Assembly (NCBI GenBank): GCA_008477525.1
Contig: SPDT01000002.1
Coordinates: forward strand, 62,001 to 126,000
Direction: 5' to 3'
DNA: 64,000 bases
Origin: Hypomyces perniciosus
Lineage: Eukaryota; Ascomycota; Sordariomycetes; Hypocreales; Hypocreaceae
The position numbers and the translations under genes are program-made. This document shows positions 9,734 to 54,713 of this stretch, piece by piece (position 1 is the first letter of the stretch; each line of letters opens with the position of its first letter). The notes below the pieces were generated by a model. That model ran no database searches and had not been told where the DNA came from. It was given only the letters and a program-made list of their open reading frames with translations.

Positions 9734-9996
9734 TGTGGCGGAGCGCGGCACAGCTATGTAGAGCATAGAGAGATGGGAAACGAAGCTTAATTCTATGAAA
9801 GAGAATATGCCGTAGTGGCCTCGCTATATATACACATAGCTAACACAAAGAAGAAGCTGTGTGCAGCGCTGTAAGCGTCTGTATAGTCTGACACATCGCT
9901 TACGCGATATGTATATCAGCTCGTATCTGCTTTATAAGCAGATAAGAGCTCCTTAGCGCTGACAAGCGGTAGGGCCCCGGCCTACTTAACCCAATA
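9734..9996 (-). repeat. Copia A 3' LTR
   Basis: 263 bp, beginning TGTGGCGGAGCGCGG and ending CCCAATA on the plus strand. It matches 28191-28451, 47789-48066 and 54714-54993 directly and 61254-61517 inverted. It is the least mutated of the five LTR copies. Confidence 0.92.
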
Positions 9997-10012
9997 CACC
10001 CCCCAGTTAATG
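9997..10012 (-). other. Copia A polypurine tract
   Basis: The minus strand reads AACTGGGGGGTG directly before the 3' LTR. Copia B has the equivalent CCCCCTAGTT on the plus strand at about 48069-48078. Confidence 0.65.
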
Positions 10013-10297
10013 AGGCTATTCCTAATGCCTTATTGACTGCTACTCCAGCCTATCTATAGTGTTGTGACTGATTGGCCGCGCTCTTAAAGCCTCTTTTGCT
10101 TAGTCGGAAGCTCCTTGTTGTGAACATGCATCGATATTCTGTTGTAGAGGTGAAAGGAATGTGAGCGCTATAGCTATTGTTGTTCTGTGATAATAGGAAG
10201 TTGAATAATAAAGCTCCTAAGCAGGTGAATCGGTCCTGAATAGTTAGAATGGGTATATTAGCTGCCCCCCGGCCTTTATTCCTCGCTCTTCTTCTTT

Positions 10298-10370
10298 AGT
10301 CATCAACATCATCATTATCAACATTAACATCAACAATAACATCAACATTAACATCAACATCAACAGCAAT
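10298..10370 (+). repeat. Trinucleotide-like ATC/AAC repeat upstream of the AT-hook gene
   Basis: A run of imperfect ATCAAC / ATTAAC units fills the presumed 5' untranslated region, ending at the ATG at 10371. Copia B has the same tract as ATTATT/ATTAAT units (48370-48415), as RIP would produce. It follows a CT-rich stretch near 10284-10295. This layout is common upstream of fungal genes. Confidence 0.6.
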
Positions 10371-10914
10371 ATGGCCCCCGCTGTAAGTATTACGCTTCCG
10401 ACTGATTCCCTTTGCGCTGCGTGTTTGTTAGCTAACAGCGAAATCGCAGAAGAAGAATACCTCGTCGGTGAAGCGTGGTCGTGGTCGCCCCCCGAAGGTG
10501 GCTCGTCGCGGCGTTGGTCGCTTGGCTGGCCGAGCGGCCATGCCTGTTGCTGCTCCCGCTCCTGCGCCGGCTGGTCCGGCTCCTTCGCGTCTGAAGGCTC
10601 GCCTCGCTGCTGAAGACGCGCGCGCTCTTGCTGAGCTGTCTGGCTCTGCGTCTTCGTCTGCTTCTGCTGCTGCCTCTGCTTCTGCCTCTGCTATCGCCGC
10701 TGCCCCTGCTGCTGTGCTGTTGTCCCCTCCTTGTGAGGGTTGTCTAAAGTCGGCAATTGCCGGCAAGGGAGACTTCTCCCAGTGTGTTTCCGTCGCCCGC
10801 TCTCAGCGGTGCGCTGCTTGCTTTGGTGGTAATCACCGATGTGCCCTTGTGGCTGGCGGCCTACGGGCCAGAATTGACCGGTTTCCCGTGTTCTTGTGTA
10901 TTCCATTCCAGTGA
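10371..10914 (+). CDS. Copia-borne antisense gene: AT-hook plus Cys-rich protein
   Basis: The proposed gene is exon 1 10371-10382, a 67-nt intron 10383-10449 (GTAAGT donor, GCTAAC branch-like site, CAG acceptor) and exon 2 10450-10914, giving 158 residues. Residues 12-20 read KRGRGRPPK, a classical AT-hook (RGRP core) that binds the minor groove of AT-rich DNA. An Ala/Ser-rich low-complexity linker follows. Then comes a Cys module, C-x2-C-x13-C-x8-C-x2-C-x6-C, resembling a small zinc-binding domain seen in many uncharacterised fungal proteins. The gene runs opposite to the copia polyprotein, and its tail overlaps the last 54 bases of pol (10861-10914). The same gene with the same intron is present, RIP-ruined, in copia B. 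Function is unknown; nuclear DNA binding is inferred. The intron is predicted only from sequence. Confidence 0.6.
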
Positions 10915-13900
10915 CCGTATATCTGCTAAGTTCAACAGTGCTTTGAAGTGCTCGAAGCGCTGCCGTGGTAGGGCTTTGGTGAGCCTGTCAGCAGGTATAA
11001 GGTTAGTGGAAAGATAGGAAACTGTAAACGATCCTTTCTGGTATTCCTGCCGAAGCCACATATTTTGTATATCAACGTGACGCAGGCGAGTGCTAATTCG
11101 CGTGCTCTCTCTAATTATAAGACATATGGTTGGTTGATTGTTATAATTGATATTCCAATTAGCGCTAGGGTTAAATTTTATCTCCCAGAAAAGGCGATGC
11201 AAACCTATAGCCTCTTTCGCTATTTGGGTAAGGGTAAGCAGTTTAGCTTTTATTGTTGATGTGCTGATAGTGCTTTGGCGCGTTATATTCTATAGGATAG
11301 GGCTTAAGAAAAGCATAATAAAATACCCCTAAAATAATCTTTAAGTATTTATATTATTAGCGAAGGAAGTATCGCTTAAAGCGGTTAAGACCTATATTTC
11401 TCCTCTCCCTCTATACTAAAGAGCTAGGAAACGCTATATATATAAATAGCGGATTAGCTGGTTAACTGCTTTAAGGTGCTTTTTGCTGGGGTTAGTTAAA
11501 AACTATGATAAAGCCAAGGCGCTATAAGCTATATTAGGCTTTATTATAATAGCAGTATAGAGTACTGATCCTACTTTCTTTTAATATATTTTAATGGTTG
11601 CTTTTAAAGTTTACAATATACTTTTCCAGAGCTCTATAATAAATATTAGAATTATAGGAAGCTATATTTTTTTATTAAGCCTGAATTCTTTTGCAATTTT
11701 CTTAAAATAGGTTTTATAGGAAAGGTATATCCTATACTCTATATAGTTTTAAGTAATTTTAATCTTTAAAAACTATTATATATCTCCTTTACTATAAAGC
11801 TTATACTTTACTTTTAAAGTATTTAATAGCTTAATATAAAGAGTTTTATTGTTAGAATAATATATAATTAAGATATTATCTATATAGAATATAATAAAGA
11901 TCTTTTAAGCTTTATTATAGAAGAGACAGGGCTTTTTAAAGCTTAAGATTAACCTTTGCTGCCTTAAGGTCAAAGATAGTTTATTAAACTATAGCTTTGG
12001 CGAGTCTTTTAAGCTATATAAGGCTTTCGCGAGCTTTAGACAAATATTTAGCTGCTTAAAACCCTTAAGGAGTTTATATATAACTAGTTTCGAGTTTTTA
12101 TCTTTAAAGGCATTAAGAAAAGTATTCTTAATATTATACTACTTTAACTTAAAGTCAAATCTTACTGTAAAAGCAATAAATATATAGAAAGAACACGCTG
12201 CTAATATAGCCGTATATATACTCTCTATAGTAAAGCACTTTTATAAGTCCCTGCAAACTATAAAGCAAGCTTTATAGTATTCTAGATTTCTGTTTTAATT
12301 AAATTTATAAGTAAAAACTTAACGCACTAGTAGTGGCTTTATTAGTGCCTTTAAATATGATATTTTTTACTAGGTTCCTTTTATATATAAAGAGTTAATT
12401 TTATTATACGCAGTTTATTTAAACTTATCTTTAAATAAGTGTTTTATAAACTTTTTTTAATCTTTTAGCAATTTCATTAAGTCCTCCTAGTAAATAATTA
12501 ATTTATTAAAAGCTATACTTTTCTAGGAGGAAGATTTTTAGTTTATTACTATATTAAAAACAGTAAATACTATTTCTATACTCTTTAATTTATTACTTAT
12601 TAGCTTTTATTAATTAAGTAGCAGTTAATATAGCGTTAAATTAAAGAGCCTAGTAATTATTAAGTATATACCAGGCTTATTATCCTTAAAAGCAGTGCTT
12701 AAAGTATACGTTTTAATCCTATATACTAGGAGATACTTATTAGCCTTTCTTGCAGGTTACTTCCCTTAGAGTTTTAAGCTTTTATAAATATTAGCTACTG
12801 CTCTGCCGCTTAAAGGATTACTAGCTGGCATTTCCTTAAAGGTCTGCTCTTCTTTTATAAAAGTAGGCGAGTCTTTTATATACTAATCTGCTTCTAGCCT
12901 TAGCAGACTATCCTCTTTTATTAGGTTATATACCTTTAATATATAAGGCTGTTCTTCCGCTATATCCCTCTCTGTAAAGAGGGGTAAGTTATTTACTAAA
13001 GTATTGCCTAGGGTTCCTATTAATACACTAATATTATCTATAAAGTTTAACTATTCTAGGGTAGCCTTTAGTATTTAAAGACTAAAAGGTCTTTTTAAGT
13101 ATACTAATAGTTTACTTAAAGTATTTATTAAACTATCTTTAATACTCTATATCTCTATTACCCTTAAAGGTATACTCTCTTTTTCTATATTACTTATAAA
13201 GGTATTTTTTACTGTAAGAATATATATAAGGAAGAGTTTAAATTCCAGTTTATTTTCTTTAACCTTATTAAATAGTTTATTTAACTCAGCTATAGATAGT
13301 TTATCCGCAATCTCTTTATTACTATTAAAAAAACTAATTTTATTAAACTATATATTCCTTATAATAATTACCTTTACTAGGCAAAGTAACTAAATGCAAT
13401 ATATATTATTTACAGTATAGCCAATAAAATATCTAATTAGCCTTTTAGGCTTAATCTTAAATTCTCTCTTTTTCCAGCTAGCCTCGCAGTCTTTATTTAG
13501 TATATAGGCGCGGCAGCTGTATATATAAAGCCCGCTTTAATCTAGCTATAGGTCCGCGGAAGGCTCCCTTATTAAAAGGGGCATAAAATCGCGGAATTAT
13601 TACTTTAATTTATCGATAAATAATATTATATTAAGGCTGCGCATAAGACTTATATTAATAATATACGCTGCAGCTTTTGCGCTTTTAAGCTATAAGTTAG
13701 TTAAGAGACCTGCAGCTTCCAGTATTTTAATCGACTTATTTATAACTTCCTGTCCTGCCTGTTTTAAAATGCTATTTGGCTTATATATATAGAAAGGGGC
13801 AAGCTTTAGGATAATACCCTTTATATTAGCCTAGATCTAGAAGCGTAATAAGCTCTTAACTGCAATCACAGCTTTTTTATTATCTTGCCTAAGGAAGTAT

Positions 13901-15552
13901 ATAAAGACATTATATTGTGTTTTTACTATATTTATAAAATTAAATAAAGCACTAAAAATAGTTTCCTGTTTTTTATTTAGTAAAGGGCGTATATATAGCT
14001 ATATAGTATATTCTTCTTTAAGCATTAAAAGCCAGTTATCTTTATTATAGCCTTTAGGATAGTCTTAAAGATCTTAATATACTTTAAAGAATGGTTTTAG
14101 TGCTTGTCTATTAGACAGTCTGCGAGAAATAACCTGTTTCGCGTATATAAAAGCATAAGCCTTATATTCTATATATATAGTTCCCTTAATGCGCATATTC
14201 CTTATATTCTTTACAAGCGCTTTAAGCGCTTCTAGGCCTAAATATCCTAATTATAGATGCCAGAGCTGTTTAGAGTTATATTATAGTATTAGGGGATTAT
14301 ATATTAGTCTTCTCCTGCTTTTTAACGCTATATAAATACTATAATCTATATTAGGAAGAATAAAAAGAGCTGTCAAGCTGCTTAATATAGTATATTTAAG
14401 GATAGGGGCAATATAAAGCAATAAAGGCTTATATTAAAGAAATAAAAAATTATACTTATACTTTACCTTCCCTATAATAGTATTTAAACTGGCTATACTG
14501 GTGCAAAGCGTATTATCGCACCCTATTAGCTAAATCCCTGCTTTCTAAAACTTTAATAAAGATATAATATTAATATAAAATCCTTTAACTATAGCTATAT
14601 CTAAAAGCTTAATAAAGCGCGTTATCTTTTAATATAGATTATAAAGAGTATCCTTTAGTAAACAATAACCTCTTTTAATTATCAGATAGCTAGCTCCTTT
14701 TACTTTAATATAGTCCTCTTTTATATTTAAGATAAAAGAGCTGGGAATAAAGTAATTCCTACTATTTACTAGATAAATAGTACTATATATATTAAAAAGG
14801 GTATTTTAAAAGAGGTAGTAAAGTATATCCTATATATGAATATATATTAATACACTTATTAAATATACTATAAAGCTTATATCTTTTTTATTAATTAAAT
14901 CTAAAGAGATTAAGGCAGCTATAATAGTTAAAGCTATTCCTTTTTATATTAAAGCAGTAAAGTTAATACCCCTTTTACTAAGCTTTTTGCAGGTAACCTG
15001 CCATTTATCTTCTTATAGGCGCGCGCGAATCTTTATAGCCTATTTAAGCGTAAAAGTATATTTCCCTTTTTTATTAAGCTTTCTAGTAAATGCAGTATAT
15101 ACTTTACTGCAGTTATTTAAAGGCTAAGTATACCTTTAGGTCTATAAAGGCACTCTTTATTAATAAAAGGCTTTAAGTATATATTACTACTGCCTAATAT
15201 ATTATTAAAGCAGTTATTAAATATTATATAAAAGCTATAAATATAATTCTTTATATTTTTTAAAGTATTTAAAAAAAGCTATTTAAACTAATTAAAAAAA
15301 AACTTTTTATTTATTTTACTGCTTTTAATTAAGCTATTTATATAGTATAAGTAATAGGCAGTAAAGCTTAAAGTAAAGTATACTTTAATAGTTTTAAAGA
15401 AAACTATTTAAAAAGCTATTCCTATAACCTTTAAAAGCTTATACTTTACTGTACTTACATAAATATATACCTAGTAAATATACTATACTTCTAGCTTAAT
15501 ATTCCCGTGCTTTACTTTATATAGTATATATTAATAGGATAAGTGTATTTCC
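10861..15552 (-). pseudogene. Copia A pol: integrase, RT, RNase H (RIP-inactivated)
   Basis: The C-terminal 113 codons (10861-11202) are open and are a clear copia RNase H end: LRHVDIQNMWLRQE followed by ADRLTKALPRQRFEHF. Upstream, the RT active site reads YIDN at 11886-11875 (YVDD-type expected). The pre-integrase motif is readable at about 14275-14215 as LWHLWLGYLGLEALKAL once TAG is read as Trp. An integrase stretch NVFIYFLRQDNKKAV lies near 13920-13870. Stops are predominantly TAG/TAA. Sequence right of about 14.5 kb corresponds to the protease region and reaches the G2 insertion point. Confidence 0.88.
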
Positions 15553-15959
15553 TTTGTTGGGGGTAGCTGATATGCCCAACGCACCAGTATTTTTTCTTGT
15601 TAGCTTACCCGAGAAAGGTTGGCTGTTTATTTAAGCAGCTACTGGATTAGGAAAGTATAAAAGTATAAAGATATACAGATAGACCTAGTTTAATAAACAA
15701 TAACCTGTTTCCCCCTTTAATATATAACCTTACCTGTAAGAATATAGTCGCTAAGGTGTATAAAGGTAACTGTTAGTTGCTTTTGGCTGCCGGTATTATA
15801 ATTAAATGATCTATAGTATCTTTTTAGCCTTTATATTACTTAATCGCCGCTTTATAGTTCTGTTAAGAGCGCGGTTCCTGCGCTTGATACTAGTCGTTAT
15901 ATATAGGTATGTATATATATTGTATGTATATTTTAAAGTGCCAATTCCCCCTCGACAAA
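15553..15959 (+). repeat. G2 5' LTR
   Basis: 407 bp, equal in length to the 3' LTR at 27153-27559. It carries more RIP-type changes than the 3' copy. Its first 28 bases and last 20 bases are shared with the LTRs of the short element at 43690-46092. Confidence 0.92.
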
Positions 15960-15961
15960 AC

Positions 15962-15980
15962 TAATAACCGAGACAGGGGG
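15962..15980 (+). other. G2 primer-binding site
   Basis: Two bases after the LTR the sequence reads TAATAACCGAGACAGGGGG. The corresponding site of the short element reads TGGTAACTGAGATAGGGGG. The ancestral form therefore began TGG, complementary to a tRNA CCA end. I could not assign the tRNA. Confidence 0.55.
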
Positions 15981-15999
15981 AAATCTTAGGGATTATATC

Positions 16000-16990
16000 T
16001 TAAAAAGTAATTACTGAGGGTATTTCTATACTGCTACTAAGACTTACCTTTACTTAACTACTGATAGAATTATAGGCTGGCTTTACCTAGTCTCTATATA
16101 AATATAAGATAATCAGCTAAGGGAAATAGCCTAAAACCCCTTTTATAACCATTTAATATATATTAATATAATATTTAACTCTAAAAACGCAGGTTATCTA
16201 GTTGCAATTTCTAAAAAGATATCAGGATTAGTTAACCTAGGCGTAACGCGCTAAAATATAATAAAAGAGCGGAACCTTAAGAAACTACCAGTCAATAATA
16301 CCTGCTAATCGAGAGCTAAGATCTTAAAGAAAATTACTAAAAGACTAGTCGCTATAGTAAAAGCAAATATACAGGTAAAACAGTTAATACTATATAACCT
16401 AAGCCCCCCTAAACTATTAATACGCTATTGCAACCCCTATTTTACTTACTAGCAGGTAGGTTAATAGGTGGAACGGCTATAGGGGGCTGATAAGGGATAT
16501 ATTAATTATTTGATTTCCTAGTATAGAGACTTTATTTTAGTTTTATTAATATTCTTAGCCGGGTTTTTTTTAACTTTAAATAAAAGTACTATTTTTACTG
16601 CTTTTATAATCTCTAGTATATAGGCTATCTTTACCTATATTAAAGATATTTAAAGAAAATATAAGAACAATAATAACCTAATATCTTGCAACCAGTATTA
16701 ACGCAGGAAGCTATCCTTAAAAGACCAGCTAATTTCTTTATCCTAGACAGATAAACGCGACCCTTCTTTTTTATAAAAGAACTCCCTATATTAATAGAAT
16801 ATATCGCTACACCTTTATTACTAAAGGAATATATCCCTTTTTCAGCTAAAAGAAGAATACTCCTTTAAAGGCTAGTTATTTAAGTTAAATAACTTTAATC
16901 TGCAAAAGAAAGGGTATTCTTTTACTAAAGAACTATTTAATTAAAACTCTGATAATTTACTTTAACTTAAAGTAAAAGACTTTAAATTAA
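16000..16990 (+). other. G2 5' leader
   Basis: The first 100 bases after the priming site match the leader of the short element at 44002 onward (GGGGGAAATCT followed by GGGATTATAT). The rest is eroded and I see no reliable frame before gag becomes legible. Confidence 0.5.
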
Positions 16991-18300
16991 ACTAATAACC
17001 TCCTTTTACTAGGATATTAGATGCAATTTTATCTTTAACCCTTTAACCTAAAGAATTATTTAATTATACACTTAACCTAATATTAATAATATCTATATCT
17101 ATTATAATAGAATCTAAAGAAGGATTAGGCTCTTTAGCAGAAAAGGAGAAGTTACTATTTTAAAAGTTCCTTTTCTTTATTGAAGCCTTTAAGAATATCT
17201 AGAGTATAAAGTTACTGATAGGGATTAACCTTATAAGTAAATTTAATAGTAAGAATATATTTTAGTTTTTAAGAAACTATAAGTAAGAAATAGAAGATTA
17301 GGGAATTTTAATTAAGGATTAAGGGAGGTACCTGGAACTATTTATAAAAGTAAAGGAATAGAAAACAGTTTAGATTTTTATTAAAGAAAGCACTGACTAA
17401 AATAAAATAAAGAAAGAACTTTTATAATACTATAAGTAATAGGATAAAGATTAATTGGAATTATATACAGTACAACTCTAAAACCTTTATTGCTATAAAC
17501 CTATAAAAATATAGTCTATAATAGATTAGTTACTTTAATATTAATATTTCTATTAAAAGTTTAATAAGAAAAATTAAAGGACAGTAATACTATATTCCTA
17601 TAATATCGCGAAAGCAATACTACTAGAGCTGCTTTGGCTAATAATAGCTTTTAAAGGGATTAAAAAAATTAATAATTTTAAGGATCTAGTGTATACCAAG
17701 GTCTAGACGCTTTTCTATAATAAAATACTAGCAGAGCTTGATATTTAAAGAGCCTATTTTAAAAGTTTAATAAAGGACTATTTAAGACTAGGGACTTATT
17801 AGATTTATCTAAGTTGGAGTTAAGCCTAAAGATAAGAAAGCGAAAAGAAAAATAGCTTAAACCTATAGAATTAACTATAACTTTACAGCTTAAAGATTAA
17901 ATAAATACTTTATTTGAAAAATTTAATAAACTAGCAATTTAACTCTTTTAGCAGAAAGAAACAGCAATTAACCTAAAAGAAAGAGAATATTATTGCATTA
18001 CTACTAGTAGCAATAAACCTAAATAAAGACCTTTTACTTTAACAATTACTATTAATAATATTAATATAATAGACCCTTTATATAATAATATACTAAATAC
18101 TTTTTTTATTAATTACTTAAAGGCAGTTGCTAATATTAAATACTACTAGTATTATAAAGATAAAGACTATTTTCCTTAAAACTGCGTTAAGTTAGCCTAT
18201 AATAAAGGCTGCAGGTTTATAATATATAACCTAGCAGTAAAAATAGCTTAGGTAAACCCGCGGAAAACCCTAATCCCGCCTCGACTTATTATATTAATTA
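16990..18300 (+). pseudogene. G2 gag with zinc knuckle (RIP-inactivated)
   Basis: A plus-strand frame with TAG/TAA stops leads to a degenerate knuckle at 18138-18185, reading KYYWYYKDKDYFPWNC with TAG/TAA read as Trp. The C and H positions of a C-x2-C-x4-H-x4-C motif are now Tyr except the last Cys. The start of gag cannot be placed. Confidence 0.6.
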
Positions 18301-21300
18301 TAACTGTCAGGACTTATATATAAAAAATGCTAGCGCTTTAAATAGAATTGTTTAAAGCTTAAAATAAGGTTTCCTTAAGCCTATTACTTGCAAAAAAGAT
18401 AAAACCTGGCTTTTTCGACTGGGAACTGACTACTTATAAGGCTAAACTTTTTAGTACTGTCTATAATAAAATAGTATATAGGGAGATATTTAAGATTTAG
18501 GCACTATAAAAGTTAAATATAATTCCTGTAAAGGGACTAATAATAAATATTATATACTTTATAGGCAGAGATTAAATAATTGCTGAAAAAAGGGATAATA
18601 TATAAGTAAAAGGGGTCAAGAATTTTTCTATAAACCTAGCTAAGACAGCCTCCCTGGAAAAACCCTTAGATAAATATAACCAGGCCAGCTTAACCAAGGA
18701 ATTATTTAATTAGACTCTCCTCGCTAACCCTATAACTGGCAGGGGATAAAAGCGTGTTTGTATAATTAATGAGGCGGACGAGTAAGTTAAAGAGGAGCTG
18801 TTGCCGCTTTAGGTAGAAAAACCGATCGAGAAAGAGCAACTGCATTCAGACCCTATACCTGTAACCTTAAAGGCTACGCTGTCTAGACTGCAATACAATA
18901 AAAAAGGCGGAACTAAAGGCACTAAAAATAAAAAGGAATTACTAGGAGCAGAGTAAGCTAAAATAATAATCTAAGCAGCAATTCTGGACAATGCGATTAA
19001 GCTTAAGACTAGCACTCTTTTAAATATTATTCTAAAACTTGCGAATGCCTTAAAAGCAGACTTAATTGAGAAATTATAAAGGATTACTGAAATACAGTTT
19101 TATAGAAAAACTAACTTGACTATCTCTAAATATACCTTATATTAAGTAATATCTATCTCTATATATAAATATCCTTTAAAGGAAAAACTATTAAAAAGAT
19201 TAGATGCAATAGCTGTATATGTAAAACCAACTATATAAGTCGTTTAGTTGCTATAGGACTAACCTCCTGAAACTATAACCTCGCGACCTTTACTAGTAGA
19301 GGGATTACTAAATAAAGAGTTATTTAATCTTAAAGACTTAAACCTATTATTACCTTTAGAAATATACTTTTATAAGCTAAAGTAATTATATATAGCTATT
19401 AACTATAAAGCAAATTAGTTATAGAAGTCTATAATTTAGATTTATATAGTTTAAATAAAAAAGATCCTCTGCTACTTATAGGACTTACTGTAAATACAGG
19501 TATATTTAAGAGAGCCTAATAGTATATTTATTAAAGCACTTATAGATTTAAAGTTAAAGGGAAATATTATCTTTTATTAGCTGGCTATAAAATATAGTGT
19601 AATAATATACTCTTATAAAGTGGTTAATACTGCATTTAATAATAGGCAAGTAAATATATATAGTAAAACTATTATTTAGGTATATATAGGCAATGCCTGG
19701 ATAGCAGCCAGATTTTATATTATACCTAATAATATTTTAATGCCCTTTATCCTTAAGATACTATTTATTTAGGCTATACAGTTAACATTTAATTATATAC
19801 TAAAGAATAGGGATTTATATATAAAATATAAAATAGGGAATATTTAAAGTATTACTTTAGCTGCTAGAGCTATCTATTAGGAATATAAAATAGAGGCGTT
19901 ATATAACCTAAGGCTAAAATAAATGTTAACTTTATATCTAAGTATAAAGTTAATAAGGCGGAAGAAAGCAGTAAAAGAATTTAAAGGAGTAGAGGAATAA
20001 AGGAGAAAGTCCTAAAAGAAAGCGCGGAAGCGTAAGCGGATTAAAACTAATACTATATATAAAAAGAAGGGCATAAAAATCTATCTAGTAGACAATGCCC
20101 TATTTAATAGTTCTATTTCTACTGGGAGTCTTTATTGGAAATAGAAGAAGTAGGATAAAGTTAAAGACAATTTAGACCCCAATACCCCATTCGCTGAATA
20201 TATTATGCTAAAGTTCTTACTAATTGAAGCTGGGTTAAGACTTATACTAGACTGCCTAGCAGTAATCCTGAAAATAGTAGAAGGGAAACTGATAATATAA
20301 GAAACCGCGATCTTAATGCAGATCTTAAAAAATAGGGAAATAGCTCTTTCCTGGGATTTTACGGAATATAGAAAGCTGGACCCTGAAATTGCCCTACTAT
20401 AGACTATTTGTATAATAAAGTATAATATTTAGCAGAGCAGTAGTATCCTAATCCTTAAAGGTATAGAAAAGAAAGTAGTTAACCTGCTATAAATATATAT
20501 TAAAAAAGGTCTTTTAAAGGAAGGCTATAGGCTATATAGAAACCTGTTTTTCCTAGTATAGAAGAAAGACAGCGGCCTTCGCTTTATTAACTCTATTATA
20601 CAGATAAATAAAGTGACTATTAGGGATGCCTTTATTCCCTTAAATGCAGACTAATTTAGCAAAAACTTCGCGGGTTATATAATACTGTTATTACTAGACT
20701 TTTTCTTGGGCTATAATTAAATCCCTTTTAATAAGAAAAGCCGAGATATAACTATATTTGCAAGCCCTATTGGCCTTTTAAGATACTATACTTTTCTAAT
20801 AGGCGCCATAAATTTAGTAGCGCAATTTCAATATATTATTCTTTAAATACTATTTAATCTTGTACCTACAGTTTACCGACTATTCTTAGATAATATTGCA
20901 GTGCAAGGTTTAAAGTCTATGTATAGCAGTAAAAAAACAATACCTAAGGTTTAACGCTATATCTTAAAGCATCTATAAAACCTAAATAAAACCCTAATAA
21001 ATATTAAACTATTAGGATATATAATTTCGGCAGTGAAATCAGTCTTTTATTAGGAATCTGCTAAGTTAATAGGGTACCTGTATAGAATAGAAGGGCGCTA
21101 ACCAGCTATAGGCAAAATTATTAAAATTAAAGAATAAAAGAACTGTAAAACTATTAATAAAGTTTGATCTTTCCTTAGTCTAGTTAGCTACTATAGATAC
21201 TAGATTGAACATTTCGTGTAGATCACTAAGCCTTTAATAACCCTATTAAAGAAAGACGCCCCCTAAAAGTGGATTAAGGAATAATAGTAAGCTATAAATA

Positions 21301-23270
21301 AACTTAAAGAGCTTATTACTTCCGCCTTAATACTAGTGATATTAAATATAAGTAAAGGATATAAAGAGGTAATCTTTACAGTTAATGCTAGTATAGTAGG
21401 CTAAGGGGCTGTTTTAATATAGATTATGAAAAGGAAAAGATAACTAATTTAATATAAAAGTAGATACTGGCTTTTATTAGAAATAAAGTATAACGCTATA
21501 AAGAAAGAATGCAAAGCCTTACTCTAAGCCTTTAAAAGGCTATATATTTATATCTATAGGCTTCCATTTACACTAGAAATAAACGCTAAAGTAGTTATTA
21601 ATTAAATAAATAATGGAATTAATAATATCCCTAGCAGGTATATAACCCGATAAATTAGTTATATCCTTTTTTTTGACTTTACTGTTAAGTATATCCCTGG
21701 GAAAGAAAATATTATAGCGGACGCTTTATCCTATAAACCAGTAACTGCTATAAATAAGGCTAAAGCTAAAAAGAAAAGGGATTTAAAAGATTTTATAGAT
21801 ATATACTTAAGTATAATTTTATTTATACTGCTGGGGGAAGAGTATAGCGAGGAGTTTTAATAGATTGCGCAGTACCTTTAAATAATATAAAGACTATTTA
21901 ATCTTTTAGCTGTAAACTTTTAGCGATTTAAAAATAAAGCAAAAAGGTTTATTGTAAAAGACAGGAAGTTATAGGTAAAATTAATAAAACACTGCCGCTA
22001 ACCTGCACTTATCCTTAACAGCCTAACCTTAAAGAAAATAGCTATTTAGCAGTGCTACGCTAAAATAGGCTATAAAAGCTAAAAGGTAACTTTCCGGTTT
22101 TTAAAGGAAAGATACTAGTGGCTGCAGATATAGAACGATATATGTAAGGCAGTTATATTATGCCCCTAGTATTAAGGCTTTAATCTACACTGCTTTAAGG
22201 AGCCAGCTATCGCAATAAAACTAACCAGGCCTATAAAGAAGGTCCATTTTAATACTTAATATATCTTAAATAACTATAGATATATCTATTTATTTAAAGG
22301 AAGATATAACTTTTATAGATAAATAAAAGTAAAACCTATACCTACTTTATTATTAACAGTAATAATAAAGTTTATATTTAAATAGATATACTAATTTAGT
22401 ATAATAATTTAGGCTATTATAGATAAAGGACTAGAAATAAAAAAAAATACTTAAAGGTATTAATTAATCTAGGAGTTAAAATTATTTAGATATTAGTATA
22501 TAACCCTAAAGCTAACACTGCAGTAAAGGTCAGCTATTAAAGTTTAATATCAGCACTAGCAAAAATAGCTAAGCTCGATAAAAAGTGGTTTTAGAACTTG
22601 GATAAGGCGATTATAGCTAATAGATATATAGTGAAAAGCTTAACAGGGTACTCTGCATTTTACCTGTTATTTAGCTAGGAACTGATTTTTCCTTTAAAGG
22701 TAAAACTACCTACCTGGCAGCTAATTGACTGGGATAAAGTCTATATAATAGAAGATTAATTAATAGCGTGTATTTGTGTACTTGAAAGAAAAAAGGGAGA
22801 TATTAAGACAGCCTGGGAAAGAGTGACTGCGTTTCGCTAAATATTAGCTAAAAGGATAAATGCTAATAATTAGTATTTACTGCAGAAAGCGGCTAAACCA
22901 CTCTTCCCTAGCAACCTTATCTTACTCTATAATGCAAAGCATTAAAGGGACCTTTTAAGAGATACGAAACTAAGGATATATTAGCTAGGCCTATTTAGGA
23001 TTAAGTCTTAAGTAAATATAATAAGAGTATATAAACTAAAAACGTTAAATAAGGTCCTGTTTAATAAAATTTACTTAGGCGAATATTTAAAGAAGTTTAT
23101 AAAAAATAAATTTAGTTAATAGGTAATTAAAGATAATAAAAAGACTTTTATAGATTAAGACCTAAAGGTAAATAAAGACCTACTTAAAGATAAAGCGGTT
23201 AATATAGCGATAATTAAGGTTATTAATAACCAAAAACTTAAAAAGCTTTACAGTAACTCTTTAACTACTA
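18300..23270 (+). pseudogene. G2 pol: protease, RT, RNase H, integrase (RIP-inactivated)
   Basis: The protease region is around 19530-19800, with ALID (Asp at 19544-19546) followed by GNII. RT is legible from about 20150. It includes IRDAFIPLNAD, a LLDFFLGYNWIPF-type segment and VYRLFLDN at 20869-20895, where FLDD is expected. RNase H starts FTVNASIVG (21375 on; VDAS expected). The integrase second Asp and Glu segment reads AIIDKGLEIKK at about 22410-22440. The frame is the same over several kilobases once TAG is read as Trp, so RIP rather than indels did most of the damage. Confidence 0.88.
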
Positions 23271-24850
23271 AAGGAATATATAATTAATAAAATTAAATAG
23301 TCTATCTAAGAACTAGGGTATATACTTATAAATTAAAGGAAAAAAAGATATTTTAACTAAAATACAGTCCCCTATAACACTTTAAGGTAGCTATTCCTGG
23401 AATAAACCAGACAAGTTAGGACAATTACCTCTATATAAAGGATATATAGGGGAGGATAAGCAGTAATATTTTTAAAAAACAGCTGCTAGGTATTGTTTTT
23501 AAAGGGGAGGAGACAGCCGCTAATTAAAGTCTACTGCCTTACTTATAAAAAATATAACCTAGGTATACTATAAGGAAAAGAACTGCAAGATTAAATGATT
23601 TATTAACTATATTTCCCTATTAACTGCTTATTTTTTAATAGTAAAAGCTAAAATAAACTTCTAAACCTGCCAAATCGCTTAACTTTCTGCCTTTTTATTT
23701 CCTTTAAAATAAAGAAAGTCTTTTATAAAATAAAGGGCTATTAAAGGATTAAAATAGCTAGAGACTATTAGCCTAATAGAAGTAAGTGTCTAATCTTTCT
23801 TAAGGAAAGTAGTAGCTATACTTTAGTTACTTTATTAAAGCTAGTAACTAGGAAGATGTCGCTAAGTATAAGAAAAGGCCCTAGACTAGAGGCAATTTAA
23901 ATAGTCCCTTTATTAAAAACCTGGGATAAAGATATAGTTGTAAAAAGGGAATAAAATATATTCCTTAACAGTTATAACAGTAATAGACTAAATCCAAAGG
24001 CACCTTTAGCAGAACTAAGGATTACGCTATCTGTAAAACAATATAAATAAGGCCTTAATACACTCTATCCGCTTAAAAAGAGTATAAAAGAACCACCTAT
24101 AAATATATAAAATCTCTGCCAGGATATAGACAGGCTTAAAAAGCTTTTTTTTAATAGCGTATATAATATTCTAAAGATATAACTAAAAGCCTTTAAAAGT
24201 ATAGCGCTAAAAATATTCCTTAAAGGTATAACCTTTTATAAATAATAAAAGTAATGAGGATAATGTAAATAAAAGGGAGAAAGCAATCTTTAAATAGATT
24301 GGCAAATTTAACCGACTAATATTAATATTACTTATAATCTAAACAGTAAAACACTCTTAGATTTAAATAAAATTAAAATAAAGATACCGATTAAATAATA
24401 CCTATTTATTAAAGCTTTATTTAAGGTAGATAGCTAAGTAGAGAGATAAAGCTGGGTTTAACCTTTCTAGGATAAAGAAATCTCGCTAAAGGTTTTCTTG
24501 CCTATAATAGGTATATCGATAAGGTTAGTTATATTAAGCAACTAATAGCAGGCTTTTTTAGCGGGATCCTCTATAATTAAATAATAGCTAAAGAAAGATT
24601 AAGAGGAAAAGAAAAGAGAGAGAGAGAAAAGAAAATAAAAAATAAGCAAGTTATAAAGGCTACCTTAAAAGAACAGTAATTTACATATAATAAAGAAACC
24701 ACCCTATACACTAAACTATACACCTATACCTATAAAAAGACAAAAATAATATTATACTCTGCCTTTTTTCTTCTCTTTATCCACTTAAATACAATCCTAT
24801 CTCACTATAACTAAAATATTGCCTTTACTTTAAATCCCGCTTTAGAACCA
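23270..24850 (+). other. G2 sequence after integrase, no gene assigned
   Basis: AT-rich, eroded sequence downstream of the presumed pol stop. A GA-rich run (AGAGAGAGAGA-type) lies near 24615-24650. I see no conserved motif. Confidence 0.4.
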
Positions 24851-25129
24851 TTTAATTATACCTTTCTTCCTTCTCTACTACAATATCCTATTTAAAGAAA
24901 AACCTTTACCCTTTTACTTTATTTTTCTGGCCTATAAAAGATAAACTAAAAACTTTACTCCCTTACTATATCAGCTAAATATCCTTAAACCGCGCTAAAA
25001 ACTTCTTTAGGCCAAATAAACAAAACCTTACTATTAGTCCTATTATAAGTTAATATAGCCATTAACTATTATAGATCTACCTTTAACTTAACTAGTATAT
25101 TACCAGCTACCTATAATTACTAGTTAAAA

Positions 25130-26170
25130 TAATAATTACTTTAAGCTATATTTACTATAAGAATTTTATACTAATGCCTGACTTTAAAGTAAATAAATAG
25201 TAATTTTATATTAAAGATATTTATAACTTTTTATATAACTTTTCCTATAAAAGATAAGCGTTAAACTTTACTTTAAAGGCAATACTTTATATAATAGTAA
25301 AAGGATTAGTGATTATTAAAGCAGTTTAAGCTGAGATAATAGTATTTATAGATGCTTTTAAAGGTACCCCTGCCTTTAATCGAATAGTACTTTAAGCTTT
25401 TAATATTTTTAATAGACTATAGAACTTCTAATACTTTATTAAAGGATAATAAATTCTTATAGGGTTAATTTATTTCCCTAAGCACTAATATACTTACATT
25501 TTTAATAAATGCAGGTACCTTTACTATTTTAACTTTTATAGATATAACCGCGAGCGCTAAGCGCAGCAGTTCCTTGATTTATAGGCCTATATAGTTAAAA
25601 AAGCTGGATTTCCTTATTTATTTAGCTTTTATATAGTCCTGTATATAGAATAACCTGGAGCTAATAAATGTGGCTATTTAAGCCTGTTTTAGATCCAGTA
25701 AATGCTCTATAGACTTATTGGCATTAAATTAAGTTGACTGGCAGGACTTTTAAGCGGGATCTTTATCTCCTTTAGCCTTAAAAAGCACAGAACGACTAAC
25801 CTAAAGGGATTTAAACTTCTGCTTTAGGATTAATACTAGTACCTATACCCTAGCTATTCAGCTAAAAGCTATATAGACATTATTTAGGTTTTTCACTAAT
25901 CCTTAACAGTAAATAAACTTACTATTATAAATTCTAGGATAAATGTTAAAGATATCCTACCTTTTTTAATTAAATACTATTTAATTAAGTTAAATTAAAG
26001 CTAATAGGCTCCTCTTAAAATAACTTATAGGAGGAATATAATAAAGATTAATAGTTAGTGCTTAGCTGACCTGGGAGTACTAGTAAATAACCTTATAAAG
26101 GAGAATAGGTTAATCTATTATAATAATAGTCTTTCTCGACAATTAGTTGCCTTCTTACCTTTAAGCATCT
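25130..26170 (+). pseudogene. Extra legible frame (third ORF) in the 3' part of G2
   Basis: One plus-strand phase is readable for about 1 kb if TAG/TAA are taken as Trp/Gln. It includes FIDAFKGTPAFNRIVL near 25350 and SGIFISFSLKKHRTTNLKG near 25760-25810. A coherent frame at this place, after integrase, points to an additional protein (env-like, or captured). I do not recognise a family and see no signal peptide or fusion motif. It could also be the remains of another element inserted in G2. Confidence 0.4.
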
Positions 26171-26180
26171 AAAGAAGATT

Positions 26181-26540
26181 CTAATAACAGCAGCTAATAC
26201 CTAGAACGCAACTTCCTATACTAACAATACCTGCACCCTTAGCTATATAGCTAAGCCAGTCATAGTAAAGGAAAAAAAAAGTATTCTCCTTTACTTTATA
26301 AATAGTATTAATAGCGAAAAAACAAAACAATACTGCTAGCCCAGCAATATAAGCAGCGTCTCTTGCAAAAATAGTAGCAGGACTGGCGATTAAGAGTAGG
26401 TTAATGCATTTCTCAGTAACGCTATAACCTATAAGACCCCCGCTAACTGTACCAGCTATCGCTAATAATACTGAAACCTTGGATGTGGAGTCAGTTTCCT
26501 TTAAAGAAAGTAATAGCTCTTTTAACGCGTTAAAAGACAA
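26181..26540 (-). CDS. Uninterrupted 119-residue antisense ORF, membrane-like, in G2
   Basis: Starts MSFNALKELLLSLK and stays open for 119 codons in sequence that is otherwise full of RIP stops. It retains a Trp and several Cys. Three hydrophobic stretches are visible at about residues 23-40, 64-80 and 99-116, so an integral membrane protein is possible. It lies directly beyond the end of the plus-strand frame described above and is convergent with it. I do not recognise it. Chance openness in the antisense of a low-GC region remains possible. Confidence 0.3.
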   Translation of the reverse strand: MSFNALKELLLSLKETDSTSKVSVLLAIAGTVSGGLIGYSVTEKCINLLLIASPATIFARDAAYIAGLAVLFCFFAINTIYKVKENTFFFLYYDWLSYIAKGAGIVSIGSCVLGISCCY

Positions 26541-27140
26541 CTAAGACTTAAAAGATAAAAGAGTTTTAGGAGTTACTATTAAACTTAACTAGCGAGTAAT
26601 TAAAAATAATAAAAAAGCTCTTTTAAAACTAGGCGAAAGAGGGCAAGCTATAATAATAGCCTTTACAGCAGCAATAGGGAAAACTGCACTTTAATGTTCC
26701 TAGGTCTGGCGAATTACAGCCTTAAATATATACTGCAGCCTAACCCTACCGAGGCTAATAGATGAATCGGCTTAGGATAATATCCGAGAATAAGTTTATA
26801 CACCTATATAAATAATAGGATAACTAATATAAGATAAGCAGATAGCAGCTTAGAATGCCTAGTGATAAAGAGATTAATAAAAGGGGACTATTTAATTACA
26901 ATAATTCTAACAGGAAGGGAATGATTTAATATAGATTAGACAGGGAGGAATTAATAATATAAACAGCAGTAGTTTTGCTTTTAATTTTCTTTCCTTTTTT
27001 TTTTTTCTTTCTTTTAATAATACTTTTTCTGCTATTTTCCTATATTATTTACATTTTCTTTAAATGTTATTATACTGGTATTAAAGGGATTAATAGGAAA
27101 AGCGTTTTATTGAGATTCGCTACTTTTATTCGCGAATGCT
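26541..27140 (+). other. G2 3' untranslated region
   Basis: AT-rich with a pyrimidine-rich run near 26990-27030. No gene is seen. It ends at the polypurine tract. Confidence 0.4.
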
Positions 27141-27152
27141 TATAGGGAGGGT
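27141..27152 (+). other. G2 polypurine tract
   Basis: TATAGGGAGGGT immediately before the 3' LTR. The short element has the identical TATAGGGAGGGT at 45767-45778. Confidence 0.8.
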
Positions 27153-27559
27153 TTTATCAGGGGTAACTAATATGCCTAATACACTAGCATTTTTTCTTAT
27201 TAGCTTACCTAAAAAAGGTTGGCTGCTTATTTAAGCAGCTACTGGATTAAGAAAGCACAGGAGTATAAAGATATACAGATAGACCTAGTTTAATAAACAA
27301 TAACCTTTTTCCCCCTTTAATGTATAACCCCACCTGTAAGAATACAGTCGCTAAGGCGTATAAAGGTAACCGTTGGTTGCTTTTGGCTGCCGGCATTATA
27401 ATCAAATAATCCGCAGTATCTTTTTAGCCCCTATATTACTTAATCGCCGCTTTGTGGTTCTGTCAGGAGCGCGGTTCCCGCGCTCGATACCAGTCATTGT
27501 GTGTGGGTGTATATATGTGTTGTGTATGTGTTTTGGAGTGCCAATTCCCCTTCGACAAA
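27153..27559 (+). repeat. G2 3' LTR
   Basis: 407 bp. It retains more CpG and GT-rich sequence (GTGTGGGTGTATATATGTGT-type near 27500) than the 5' LTR. The 76-codon frame at 27373-27603 is a chance frame across the LTR edge. Confidence 0.92.
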
Positions 27560-28190
27560 TTCCTTATATATTATATCCTCGCAAAGAGCTAGTTAATCTT
27601 TAAGCTTTTTAATAATTTAGTAAATAGTAAATTTAATATTAAAGTCCCTATTATTTTTATAGGCTACTCTAGTAGCAGTAAAGGCTAAGGCTGCAGCTTT
27701 AAGGTTTACTAAGACTAAAGTATAAATACTAGAGTTAACTGTCTTCTAGATCTAATTCAAAATCGCATCGCTAGCCTTCCTTTTCTCTTTATTTAAAGTA
27801 ATATTAAACTAGTGCTTTTAAAGTATACTATTATAGTAAATAGAGATATCTGCCATAAAGGCATTAAGACTAAACTCTTATACTATACACTCCTTTACTT
27901 CTATTAAAGTAAATAGCTTAGTAGCAGGGAAATAGTTATTTAATTAATTAAGGAGATTAAGATTAATCTTATTCTAGACTTTAATAGTAGTTATATAGTT
28001 AGTTAAAATAGTAATCTATTTAATCTACTAAACTATTAATTCTAGCTTTATAAAAGCAATATCCCTTATATTATCTATTATAAAAGATAGCTTTAGCAGC
28101 TTAAAGGTAAAGGTAAAGGGTATAAAGAGAGATATAATATTAAAGTAAAAGTTTCTAGTAACTTTAATAGTTATTACCTAGGCTTATAAC
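27560..28190 (-). pseudogene. Copia A gag, 5' part (RIP-inactivated)
   Basis: This continues copia A right of the G2 insertion and matches copia B 54075-54713 and, inverted, copia C 61518-62150. Comparison of the three shows mostly C/T and G/A differences. By position, next to the 5' LTR, it should be gag. No zinc knuckle is legible. Confidence 0.6.
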
Positions 28191-28451
28191 TGTGGCGGAG
28201 CGCGGTACAGCTATATAGAGTATAAAGAGATAGGAAACGAAGCTTGATTCTATAAAAGAGAATATACTGTAGTGGCCTCGCTATATATATATAGCTAACA
28301 TAAAGAAGAAGCTATATATAGCGCTGTAAGCGTCTGTACAGTCTGATATATCGCTTACGCGATATATATATTAGCTTGTATCTGCTTTGTAAGCAGATAA
28401 GAGCTCCCTAGCGCTAATAAGCGGTAGGGCCCCGGCCTACTTAACCTAACA
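28191..28451 (-). repeat. Copia A 5' LTR
   Basis: 261 bp matching 9734-9996. It is more eroded than its partner. CTTAT, the right target copy, follows at 28452-28456. Confidence 0.92.
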
Positions 28452-47788: not shown

Positions 47789-48066
47789 TATAGCGGAGCG
47801 CAGTATAGTTATATAGAGTATAGAGAGATAGGAAACAAAGCTTGATTCTATAAAAGAGAATATACTATAGTGGCCTCGCTATATATATATATAGTTAATA
47901 TAAAGAAAAAGCTGTATGCAGGCGCTTTATAAGTGCCTGTATAGTCTAATATATCTTTTATGCGATATATAGATTAGCGTATATCTGCTAACAAAGCAGA
48001 TAAAAGCTCCTTAGCGCTGGCCTTAACGCTAATAAGCAGTAATGCCCTAGCCTATTTAACCTACTA
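47789..48066 (-). repeat. Copia B 3' LTR
   Basis: About 278 bp, starting TATAGCGGAGCGC (TGTGGCGGAGCGC in copy A). It has a small insertion (CAGGCGCTTTATAAGTGCC) relative to copy A, shared with the other LTR of copy B. Confidence 0.9.
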
Positions 48067-48416
48067 TACCCCCTAGTTAATAAGGCTATTCTTAATACCT
48101 TATTAACTGCTACTCTAGCCTATTTATAGTGTTATAACTGACTAGCTGCGCTTTTAAAGCCTCTTTTATTTAGTTAAAAGCTCTTTATTATAAATATATA
48201 TTGAGATTCTATTATAAAGGTAAAATGAATATAAGCGCTATAGCTATTATTATTTTATAATAATAGGAAGTTAAATAATAAATCTCTTTAAGCAGGTAAA
48301 TTGGTTTTGAATAGCTAGAATAGGTATATTAGCTGCCCTTTAGCTTTATTCTTTGCTTTTCTTCTTTAGTTATTATTACTATTATTATTAATATTAATAT
48401 TAACATTAATAGTAGT

Positions 48417-49400
48417 ATAGCTTTTACTGTAAATATTATATTTTTAATTAATTCCTTTCACACTATATATTTATTAGCTAATAGCGAAATTGCAGAAAAA
48501 AAAATACTTTACTGGTAAAGTATAGTTATAGTTGCCCCTTAAAAGTAGCTTATCCTAGTATTAGTTATTTAGCTGGCTAAGCAGCTATATTTATTACTGC
48601 TCCTGCCCTTACGCTAGCTTTTACTTTAGCTCCTACTCTTACGCCAGCTAGTCTGGCCTAGTTAAAGGATACTGCAGCTTTTACTGCTTTTAATGCGCGC
48701 TATACTGCTGCTATTATAGCTGCTTATAAAGCGCGCCTTACTATTAAGGCAGCTACTGCTTCTACTTTAGCCTTTACCTTTATTACTACTACTGCTACTT
48801 TAATAGCTACTTTTGCGGTTACTCCTGCTATAGCTGCTCCCGCAGCTGCTTTTACCTTTACCTTTACTATTACTGCTGCCCCTACTGCTATACTATTATC
48901 CCCTTTTTATAAAGGTTATCTAAAGTTAGCAATTACTGGTAAAAAAGACTTCTTTTAATATATTTCTATTGCCTACTTTTAATAATATACTGTTTACTTT
49001 AATAGTAATTACTAATATGCCTTTTAATAAACTCCTTTTTAATTTACCTATATTACTTTATTTAATTATATACTTTATAGTTATTTAATGCTTATATTAA
49101 TTATATATTAGCTCTTTTAAGCTGTAAAAAAGAGGATAATTAAATAAATAAATTTTCTTTTTTTTATATATTTGTAAGCTTATATAATTAGATAATAACC
49201 TAATATAAAAAGGCGTTATACTTTTAATTTAACCTATTAAAGGAGGAGAATTTGGTTTATATTGAAGAGGCTGTTACTTTAAATGGTCGTAATAATAATA
49301 ATAATACCTTTTATATATAAATGTATAAAGGCTAGAAAGCTTTTAAAGAATAGTTATTACAGTAATAAAATATACCTTTTATAATATATAGCCTATAGGC
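48417..49400 (+). pseudogene. RIP-ruined copy of the antisense AT-hook gene in copia B
   Basis: Homologous to 10371-10914 of copy A. The start codon is ATA. The intron donor (GTAAAT at 48429) and CAG acceptor survive. The AT-hook segment is changed by G-to-A transitions. The Ala-rich linker is longer by more than 100 bases and built from GCT/ACT triplets. The Cys module is recognisable near 48900-49020 with Cys codons now TAT. A further stretch of about 0.36 kb follows that copy A lacks. It stays readable in the same phase if TAG/TAA are taken as former sense codons, so the original protein may have been longer than the one in copy A. Confidence 0.6.
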
Positions 49401-52400: not shown

Positions 52401-53900
52401 ACAGTTTTTTTATTATCCTACTTAAAAAAGTATATAAAGACATTATATTACGTCTTTACTGTATTTATAAAGTTAAATCAAGTATTGAAAACAGTTTCCT
52501 ATTCTTTATTTAATAAAAGGCATATATATAGCTATATAGTGTATTTTTCTTTAAGCATTAAAAGCCAGTTATCTTTATTATAGCCTTTAGGATAATCTTA
52601 AAGATCCCAGTATACTTTAAAAAATAATTTTAATACTTATCTATTAAATAGTCTGCGAAAGATAATTTATTTTATATATATAAAAGTATAAGCCTTATAT
52701 TCTATATATATAGTTCCTTTAATGCGCATATTCCTTGCATTCTTTATAAGCGCTTTAAGTGCTTCTAGGCCTAAATATCTTAATTATAGATACTAGAGCT
52801 GTTTACAGTTATATTATAGTATTAAAGGATTATATATTAGTCTTCCTTTACTTTTTAATACTATATAAATACTATAGTTTACGTTAAAAACAATAAAAAA
52901 AACTATTAAGCTGCTTAGTATAGTATATTTAAAGATAAAGGCAACATAAAGTAATTGGGGCTTATATTAAAGAAATAAAAGATTATACCTATACTTTACC
53001 TTCTTTATAATAGTGTTTAAAGTGGCTGTATTAATGTAAAGTATATTATTATACCCTATTAACTGAATCCTTGCTTCTTAAAGCTTTAATAAAAATATAA
53101 TATTAATATAAAATCCTTTAACTATAGCTATATTTAAAAGCTTAATAAAATGCGTTATTTTTTAATATAAATTATAAAGAGTATTTTTTATTAAATAATA
53201 ACTTTTTTTAATTATTAAATAGCTAGCTTTTCCTACTTTAATATAGTCTTTTTTTATATTTAAGATAAAAGAGCTAGGAATAAAGTAATTCCTACTATTT
53301 ATAAAATAAATAATATTATATATATTAAAAAAAGGTATTTTAAAAAAGGCAGTAAAGTATATTTTAGATATTAATATATATTAATATACTTTTTAAATAT
53401 ACTGCAAGGCTTATATTTTCTTTATTAATTAAGCTTAAAGAAATTAAAGCAGCTATAATAATTAAAGCTATTCCTCTTTATCTTAAAGTAATAAAGTTAA
53501 TACCCTTTTTACTAAGCTTTTTACAGGTAATTTACTATTTATTTTCTTATAAATATACATAAATCTCTATAGTTTATTTATATATAAAAGTATATTTCCT
53601 TTTTTTATTAAGCCTTTTAGTAAATATAGTATATACTTTACTATAATTGTTTAAAGGCTAAATATACCTTTTAGATTTATAAAGGCACTCTTTACTAATA
53701 AAAGGCTTTAAGCGTATATTACTACTGCCTAATATGTTATTAGAGCAGTTACTAAATATTATATAATAGCTATAAGTATAGTTCTCTATATTCTTTAAAG
53801 TATTTAAAAAAAGCTATTTAAGTTAATTAAAGGAAAAGACTTTATTTATTTTATTACTTTTAATGAAACTGTCTATATAATATAAGTAATAGGCAGTAAA
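49400..53900 (-). pseudogene. Copia B pol: integrase, RT, RNase H (RIP-inactivated)
   Basis: Colinear with copia A 10861-15500. The RT active site region at about 50425-50405 reads FYINSILII, having lost both catalytic Asp. The RNase H end near 49500-49700 matches copy A with many more stops. The pre-integrase segment lies near 52740-52800. Confidence 0.8.
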
Positions 53901-54713
53901 GTTTAAAGTAAAGTATACTTTAATAGTTTTAAAGAAAGCTATTTACAAAGCTGTTTTTATAACCTTTAAAAGCTTATACTTTACTGCACTTATATAAATA
54001 TATACTTAATAAGTATACTATACTTTTAGCCTAATATTCCTGCACTTTGCTTTATATAGTATATATTAATAGGATAAATATACTTTTTTTTATATTATAT
54101 CTTTATAAAGAGTTAAGTAGTCTTTAAACTTTTTAATAATTTAATAAATAATAAACTTATTATTAAAATCTTTATTATTATTATAGGCTTCTTTAATAGT
54201 AGTGAAGGCTAAGGCTGCAGCTTTAAAGTCTATTAAGATTAAAGTATAGATACTAAAGTTAATTGTTTTTTAAATTTAATTTAAAATTATATTACTAGCT
54301 TTCTTTTTTTTTTATTTAAAGTAATATTAAACTAATACTTTTTAAGTCTACTATTATAATAAATAAAGATATTTACTATAAAGGCATTAAAACTAAACTT
54401 TTATACTATATACTCCTTTACTTTTATTAAAGCAAATAGCCTAATAGCAGGGAAATAGTTTTTTAATTAATTAAAGAGATTAAGATTAATCCTATTTTAA
54501 ACTTTAATAGTAGTTATATAGTTAATTATAATAGTGATCTATTTAATCTATTAAACTATTAATTCTAGCTTTATAAAAGCAATATCCTTTATACTATTTA
54601 TTATAAAAGATAGCTTTAATAGTTTAAAGGTAAAGGTAAAGGGTATAAAGAGAAATATAATATTAAAGTAAAAGTTTCTAGTAACTTTAATTATTATTAC
54701 CTAGGCTTATAAC
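53900..54713 (-). pseudogene. Copia B gag region (RIP-inactivated)
   Basis: Uninterrupted equivalent of copia A 15400-15552 plus 27560-28190. It supplies the empty-site sequence for the G2 insertion near 54075-54090. Confidence 0.6.

What the first reader, a model, noticed from the sequence alone, without database searches (positions are those of the whole stretch)
10371..10914. Copia element carrying an antisense, intron-containing AT-hook/Cys-rich gene
Directly seen: a plus-strand frame opposite to copia pol, between RNase H and the 3' LTR, with a consensus 67-nt intron, an AT-hook (RGRP) and six regularly spaced Cys. It recurs with the same intron in copia B, so it belongs to the family and is not a chance capture in one copy. 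An intron can persist in a retroelement only if the gene is transcribed opposite to the genomic RNA, which fits the orientation. Inference: an AT-hook protein made by the element could target or tolerate the AT-rich, RIP-mutated DNA in which these elements sit.
Basis: partly seen in the sequence, partly recalled or inferred. Interest (0 to 1): 0.88.

Follow-up and report, generated by a model that had tools for sequence, protein, structure and literature searches.

The report
Spliced antisense gene in fungal retrotransposon
A family of copy-and-paste mobile elements in a fungus, probably a relative of Trichoderma, carries an extra gene that runs backwards to the element's own genes, keeps its introns and may encode a DNA-binding protein; its function is not yet known.

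Summary
ATG 10371, the 67-nt intron 10383-10449, an AT-hook-like motif and six Cys are there. I counted 106 loci of it in the genome; 95 of 106 have a copia reverse transcriptase (RT) on the opposite strand 0.9-1.8 kb away. Of 12 copies picked by RT rank, 12 keep at least part of it. Four loci of other copia lineages showed none. The window copy has lost about 350 bp between 9-bp repeats, so the residues after RCAL and the stop at 10914 are a deletion fusion. Longer copies suggest four exons, three introns and about 240 residues. Against a context-matched null, non-synonymous change is depleted in this frame in 3 of 10 copies tested, and not in shifted frames. [quoted passage not shown] this is a variant: Ty1/copia, multi-exon, AT-hook-like. 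A role in AT-rich DNA is plausible but untested. No RNA evidence was available.

The parts
9734..9998 (-). 3' LTR of copia A (TG...CA; the element reads on the - strand)
   Evidence: ends read by eye
9999..10370 (+). presumed promoter and 5' UTR of the antisense gene (GTATATT at 10253, CT-rich stretch at 10288, CATCAAC repeats); role inferred from sequence only
10371..10382 (+). exon 1 (MAPA)
10383..10449 (+). intron 1, 67 nt
10450..10846 (+). exon 2, cut short by the deletion; holds the AT-hook-like motif (10471-10500), Ala/Pro/Ser linker and six-Cys module (10732-10842)
   Evidence: coordinates counted
10838..10846 (.). 9-bp repeat GATGTGCCC at the deletion junction; about 350 bp (intron 2 to exon 4) missing in this copy
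10847..10914 (+). frame extension across the deletion; not part of the gene in other copies
10838..15554 (-). pol/gag part of copia A (RVT_2 shown in homologous copy L009)
15555..27559 (.). foreign DNA that splits copia A; not examined further
27560..28451 (-). remaining part of copia A with 5' LTR (28191-28451)
48417..49366 (+). RIP-destroyed copy of the antisense gene in copia B (47793-54991); 67-nt intron still recognisable; end extrapolated from the L009 alignment

Best explanation
This Ty1/copia family carries an accessory gene between pol and the 3' LTR, on the strand opposite to gag-pol. Shown: a fixed place in the family, splice-site sequences, and a coding-type substitution pattern in some lightly mutated copies. 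Inferred: transcription from a promoter inside the element next to the 3' LTR; removal of three introns (67, 53-54 and 48 nt); a protein of about 240 residues with an AT-hook-like N-terminus, an Ala/Pro-rich linker, a six-Cys module (perhaps metal-binding) and a charged C-terminus. Introns survive transposition because the genomic RNA carries only their complement. Most likely role (about 0.3 on its own): a nuclear DNA- or chromatin-binding accessory protein that tethers the integration complex to AT-rich chromatin or regulates the element. The window copy is a truncated, presumably dead member. The confidence given is for a protein-coding, spliced antisense accessory gene, not for the role.
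For: Place: 95 of 106 loci with opposite-strand RT 0.9-1.8 kb away; part of the gene in 12 of 12 RT-picked copies. Splice sites: intron-1 donor GTAAGT 13 of 23, acceptor CAG 22 of 23; intron-2 donor GTAAGC 10 of 22, acceptor ending AG 20 of 22; intron-3 donor GTAAGT or GTAAGC 11 of 22. L009 against L034: introns 34/168 changed, AT-hook plus Cys part of exon 2 7/220, p=5.7e-8; outside CpA/TpG 21/121 vs 6/192, p=1.9e-5. Non-synonymous deficit in L034, L010, L013 (P 0.0046, 0.0024, 0 of 5000), none in 6 of 6 shifted-frame controls; pN/pS 0.19-0.38 in L034, L011, L010, L013.
Against: No RNA data. 7 of 10 copies gave no significant deficit (P 0.06-0.51), and all were compared with the same copy L009. 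Over all copies, exon 2 is hit more than the introns at RIP-type sites (0.364 vs 0.248). Exons 3+4 differ from introns only weakly (p=0.01 overall, 0.057-0.57-type values in subsets: 0.054 outside RIP sites, 0.43 at them, 0.57 for transversions). Intron-3 acceptor ends AG in 8 of 22 only, and an in-frame stop sits in exon 4 of 20 of 22 copies. The sense strand has longer stop-free stretches (275 codons in L009) than any unspliced antisense frame (164). AT_hook and DUF3716 scores are below cut-off.
Confidence: 0.72

Rival explanations
1. The region codes on the sense strand: the long stop-free stretch (275 codons in L009, 858-1682) is an extra sense gene, and the antisense frame is its mirror in GC-rich DNA.
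For: Stop-free sense stretches of 275 (L009), 280 (L011), 205 (L034) and 148 (window A) codons, longer than unspliced antisense frames in three of these four.
Against: 1-2-nt indels at 967/969, 1016 and 1022 in many copies break it. No non-synonymous deficit in 8 of 9 sense-frame tests; one of nine, L013, at P=0.017. The sharp contrast between intron 1 (13/67) and the AT-hook exon (2/93) in L034, p=0.0004, has no reason on the sense strand.
Confidence: 0.07
2. The antisense transcript acts as RNA: it pairs with genomic RNA, yields small RNAs and limits the element; the protein is secondary.
For: Proposed for plant antisense ORFs in PMC7264820 (read). The gene overlaps the 3' part of the genomic RNA.
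Against: Does not predict the non-synonymous deficit or exons more conserved than introns in L034. The two can be true together.
Confidence: 0.12
3. A host AT-hook/DUF3716-type gene was captured and rides along as a passenger with little use to the element.
For: Some fungal DUF3716 proteins have a GRGRPNKV-like N-terminus before the Cys domain (P0100, P0110), the same order. Weak PF12511 hits, E=0.029 and 0.16.
Against: 14.7 bits against a cut-off of 22. With Cys fixed, 24 of 200 shuffles score as high against 87 DUF3716 domains. None of the five host DUF3716 loci is a copia gene place. Depleted non-synonymous change speaks against a pure passenger.
Confidence: 0.12

Closest known systems
brtn of Boty-like elements, Botrytis cinerea (Zhao et al. 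2011; title seen in reference lists only)
   Same: Fungal LTR retrotransposon with an additional antisense gene.
   Different: Boty gag-pol carries a chromodomain (PMC4227169 passage), so it is of the gypsy kind, not copia. Sequence and introns of brtn were not seen here.
gene23 of maize Grande
   Same: Antisense between pol and 3' LTR, own promoter upstream, nuclear protein (PMC7264820).
   Different: Plant gypsy-type element; no AT-hook or introns mentioned in what I read.
TRP28 antisense ORFs of Retand
   Same: Antisense ORF in 97% of clusters, probably DNA-binding (PMC11963269 passages).
   Different: Plant gypsy lineage; TRP28 domain (PF04195), not an AT-hook/Cys module; 'intron' does not occur in that text.
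HBZ of HTLV-1
   Same: Antisense nuclear protein of a retroelement; HTLV has an antisense promoter in the 3' LTR.
   Different: Retroviral; the promoter here appears to lie inside the element beyond the LTR (inferred). That HBZ mRNA is spliced is recalled, from no call.
DUF3716 (PF12511) proteins
   Same: Six Cys in the order C2C-C-C2C-C; some with an N-terminal RGRP motif.
   Different: Different spacing; score below cut-off; no more alike than Cys-fixed shuffles.

Membership tests
Ty1/copia LTR retrotransposon | copia-type reverse transcriptase (RVT_2) | tested here: met
   L009 ORF, E=2.2e-21
Ty1/copia LTR retrotransposon | paired LTRs, TG...CA, short target duplication | tested here: met
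   LTR pairs found in 19 of 22 copies; exact 5-bp duplication found in 9 of 17
Ty1/copia LTR retrotransposon | integrase upstream of RT | tested here: inconclusive
   only a sub-threshold gag_pre-integrs match, E=0.0094
Antisense additional ORF between pol and 3' LTR (aORF-3R) | position and orientation | tested here: met
Antisense additional ORF between pol and 3' LTR (aORF-3R) | present in most copies of the family | tested here: met
   part of it in 12 of 12 RT-picked copies; 96 of 150 listed RT rows had a listed gene, from capped lists
Antisense additional ORF between pol and 3' LTR (aORF-3R) | transcribed, from its own promoter | not testable with these tools
   no RNA data
brtn | sequence homology | not tested
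   no brtn sequence at hand; primary paper not held
AT-hook (PF02178) | score over the curated cut-off | tested here: not met
   14.2 vs 17.4 bits, E=0.039; RGRP core with basic flanks is present by eye
DUF3716 (PF12511) | score over the curated cut-off | tested here: not met
   14.7 vs 22 bits; 12.4 for L011, none for the longer L009 protein; 24 of 200 Cys-fixed shuffles as high

The most novel reading that the evidence does not exclude
A Ty1/copia family encodes, in reverse and in four exons, its own AT-hook chromatin protein that steers new insertions into already RIP-mutated, AT-rich DNA, so that the element uses the graveyard made by the host's defence as a safe landing zone.
Probability: 0.18. 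Interest if true: 0.85.

Novelty: new variant of a known kind. Interest (0 to 1): 0.6.

Why it matters
Antisense accessory genes of LTR retrotransposons have no settled function (PMC7264820). A multi-exon one with an AT-hook-like motif, in a copia family whose copies sit mostly in AT-rich DNA, gives a concrete testable role: DNA binding or integration targeting. It also shows that introns can pass through reverse transcription when the gene is antisense. Annotation that masks repeats would tend to miss such genes (inference).

Tried and rejected
Chance open frame in GC-rich DNA: rejected because of the fixed place, splice sites and substitution pattern.

Indel lengths as coding proof: 51 of 61 exon-2 indels are multiples of 3, but so are 23 of 41 in the non-coding 5' region with its repeats, so slippage explains much of it.

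Selection in the Cys module alone: only 5 distinct transversions there, too few.

Protection of the gene from RIP: gene-chosen copies show low mutation there, but copies picked by RT show Cys 0.818 against RT 0.828, so much of it is choice of copies; LTR (0.475), AT-hook (0.545), linker (0.419) and 5' region (0.674) stay lower.

DUF3716 membership: not met; a first script for this failed, its pattern finding 0 of 120 domains. Structure: single-sequence model of the Cys module, mean pLDDT 59, no PDB match at E<=0.001; not informative. No PDB sequence match at E<=1. Relatives elsewhere: none, none in viral contigs. As a control, a host DUF3716 protein found 305 proteins, the named ones fungal, so fungi are in that database; one search was swamped by low-complexity words, one search scored only 38 candidates, and masked repeats may be missing, so the negative is weak.

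In print: ten searches. In the listings I saw no report of an AT-hook or intron-containing antisense gene in a copia element; I did not read most listed papers, and most subscription papers are not held.

Full report
What is there. On the + strand, ATG 10371, a 67-nt intron with fungal-type sites and an open frame to 10914 give 158 residues. The gene lies opposite to a copia element that reads on the - strand: 3' LTR 9734-9998, far end 28451, split by foreign DNA at 15555-27559. ORFs of the homologous copy L009 match the copia reverse transcriptase family RVT_2. The ATG is about 370 bp inside the LTR, behind a TATA-like box, a CT-rich stretch and CATCAAC repeats, which looks like a fungal promoter and leader (role inferred, recalled pattern).

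The window copy is truncated. In other copies the first 476 bases of the query and its last 77 match about 350 bp apart; the overlap is a 9-bp repeat. Longer copies go on after the six-Cys module: a second intron of 53-54 nt (donor GTAAGC in 10 of 22, acceptor ending AG in 20 of 22), exon 3, a third intron of 48 nt (donor GTAAGT or GTAAGC in 11 of 22, acceptor ending AG in only 8 of 22, AA in 14) and exon 4. Joined so, L009 reads about 240 residues with one internal stop; the divergent copy L034 reads through that place but has lost the ATG and has another stop later. The exon-4 stop is in 20 of 22 copies, so a shorter C-terminus cannot be excluded. Most of these splice-site and start differences are G-to-A, as RIP would give.

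It belongs to the family. Merging the 150 listed rows (of 215) of the protein search with 40 of the 63 rows of the DNA search gives 106 loci; 95 have an opposite-strand RT 0.9-1.8 kb away, median 1077 bp, and 5 have a same-strand RT within 4 kb. To avoid choosing by the gene I picked 12 copies by hand down the RT list: 12 of 12 align in the intron 2-exon 4 part and 11 of 12 in the AT-hook exon. Conversely 96 of 150 RT rows had a listed gene; the other 54 are not shown to lack it, since the gene list was cut, and copia B of the window is among them. Four loci on the 3' side of RT of other copia lineages showed no match and no six-Cys or RGRP pattern; whether the fetched 3-3.7 kb reach their LTRs was not checked.

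Is it coding? The copies are heavily hit by C-to-T change, most at CpA, as in repeat-induced point mutation, so most differences between copies say nothing about selection; over all copies exon 2 is even hit more than the introns at such sites (0.364 vs 0.248). First test, L009 against the divergent copy L034: introns 34/168 changed, AT-hook plus Cys part of exon 2 7/220 (p=5.7e-8), LTR 33/257, 5' region 27/290, exons 3+4 25/232. The intron contrast holds outside CpA/TpG sites (p=1.9e-5). Against the 5' region it is weaker (p=0.0066 overall, 0.17 outside those sites), and for exons 3+4 against introns weak (p=0.01 overall, 0.054 outside those sites). Second, substitutions redrawn at matched contexts: non-synonymous changes are fewer than expected in L034, L010 and L013 (P 0.0046, 0.0024, 0 of 5000); L011, L027, L028 and L012 lie at 0.06-0.09, L014, L019 and L016 at 0.20-0.51. 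Without the linker L034, L010 and L013 stay at 0.0036, 0.020 and 0.022, the other seven at 0.15-0.84. Frames shifted by 1 or 2 show no deficit in 6 of 6. Ten of 22 aligned copies were tested, all against L009, so the tests are not independent. Third, sense-strand frames show none in 8 of 9 tests; one is at P=0.017. The sense strand does hold longer stop-free stretches (275 codons in L009), but 1-2-nt indels between copies break them. I take the antisense gene as real, with exon 2 better supported than exons 3 and 4.

What the protein is like. AT-hook: 14.2 bits against a cut-off of 17.4. Six Cys: weak DUF3716 match, 14.7 against 22; profile comparison is no better than Cys-fixed shuffles (24 of 200 as high). 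Some fungal DUF3716 proteins begin with GRGRPNKV before their Cys domain, which makes descent from such a gene an idea, not a result. The model of the Cys module is poor. The best named hits of a host DUF3716 protein are Trichoderma proteins at 64-75% identity, so the genome is probably from near Trichoderma; this is inference.

Where the elements sit. Of 17 copies with two paired LTRs, 15 have both flanks below 35% GC; the exceptions are L021 and L028. L009 and L011 are barely mutated (49-50% GC) yet have flanks of 18-24% GC and exact 5-bp duplications, so they landed in DNA that was already AT-rich. Of 20 evenly spaced 500-bp samples, 1 is below 35% and one at 35%. This fits targeting, but also purging from genes and nesting. 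These 17 were chosen by gene match, which favours less mutated copies.

Known or new. [quoted passage not shown] PMC11963269, passages; PMC8365987 and PMC4227169, passages; Zhao et al. 2011, title only). What differs here is a Ty1/copia host, several introns and the AT-hook-like motif. Ten literature searches listed no such report in the held library. Hence: new variant of a known kind.

Noticed in passing
window 9734-11300 against 11300-15554: Copia A is a mosaic: CpA/TpG sites are hit 12% in the LTR-to-gene part (22/187) but 81% in pol/gag (383/473). In RT-picked copies only LTR, 5' region, AT-hook and linker stay lower than pol.
   Followed up: partly
window 61256-63230, - strand: A third piece of the same copia family, in reverse, with its LTR at 61256-61517.
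   Followed up: no
window 15555-27559: About 12 kb of foreign DNA nested in copia A; content not examined.
   Followed up: no
L029-L033: Five host loci match DUF3716 over its cut-off; the best has fungal relatives, Trichoderma first.
   Followed up: partly
L035, L050: Copia elements of other lineages with open pol frames lie in stretches of normal GC (0.51 and 0.45) and showed no antisense gene; two cases only.
   Followed up: partly
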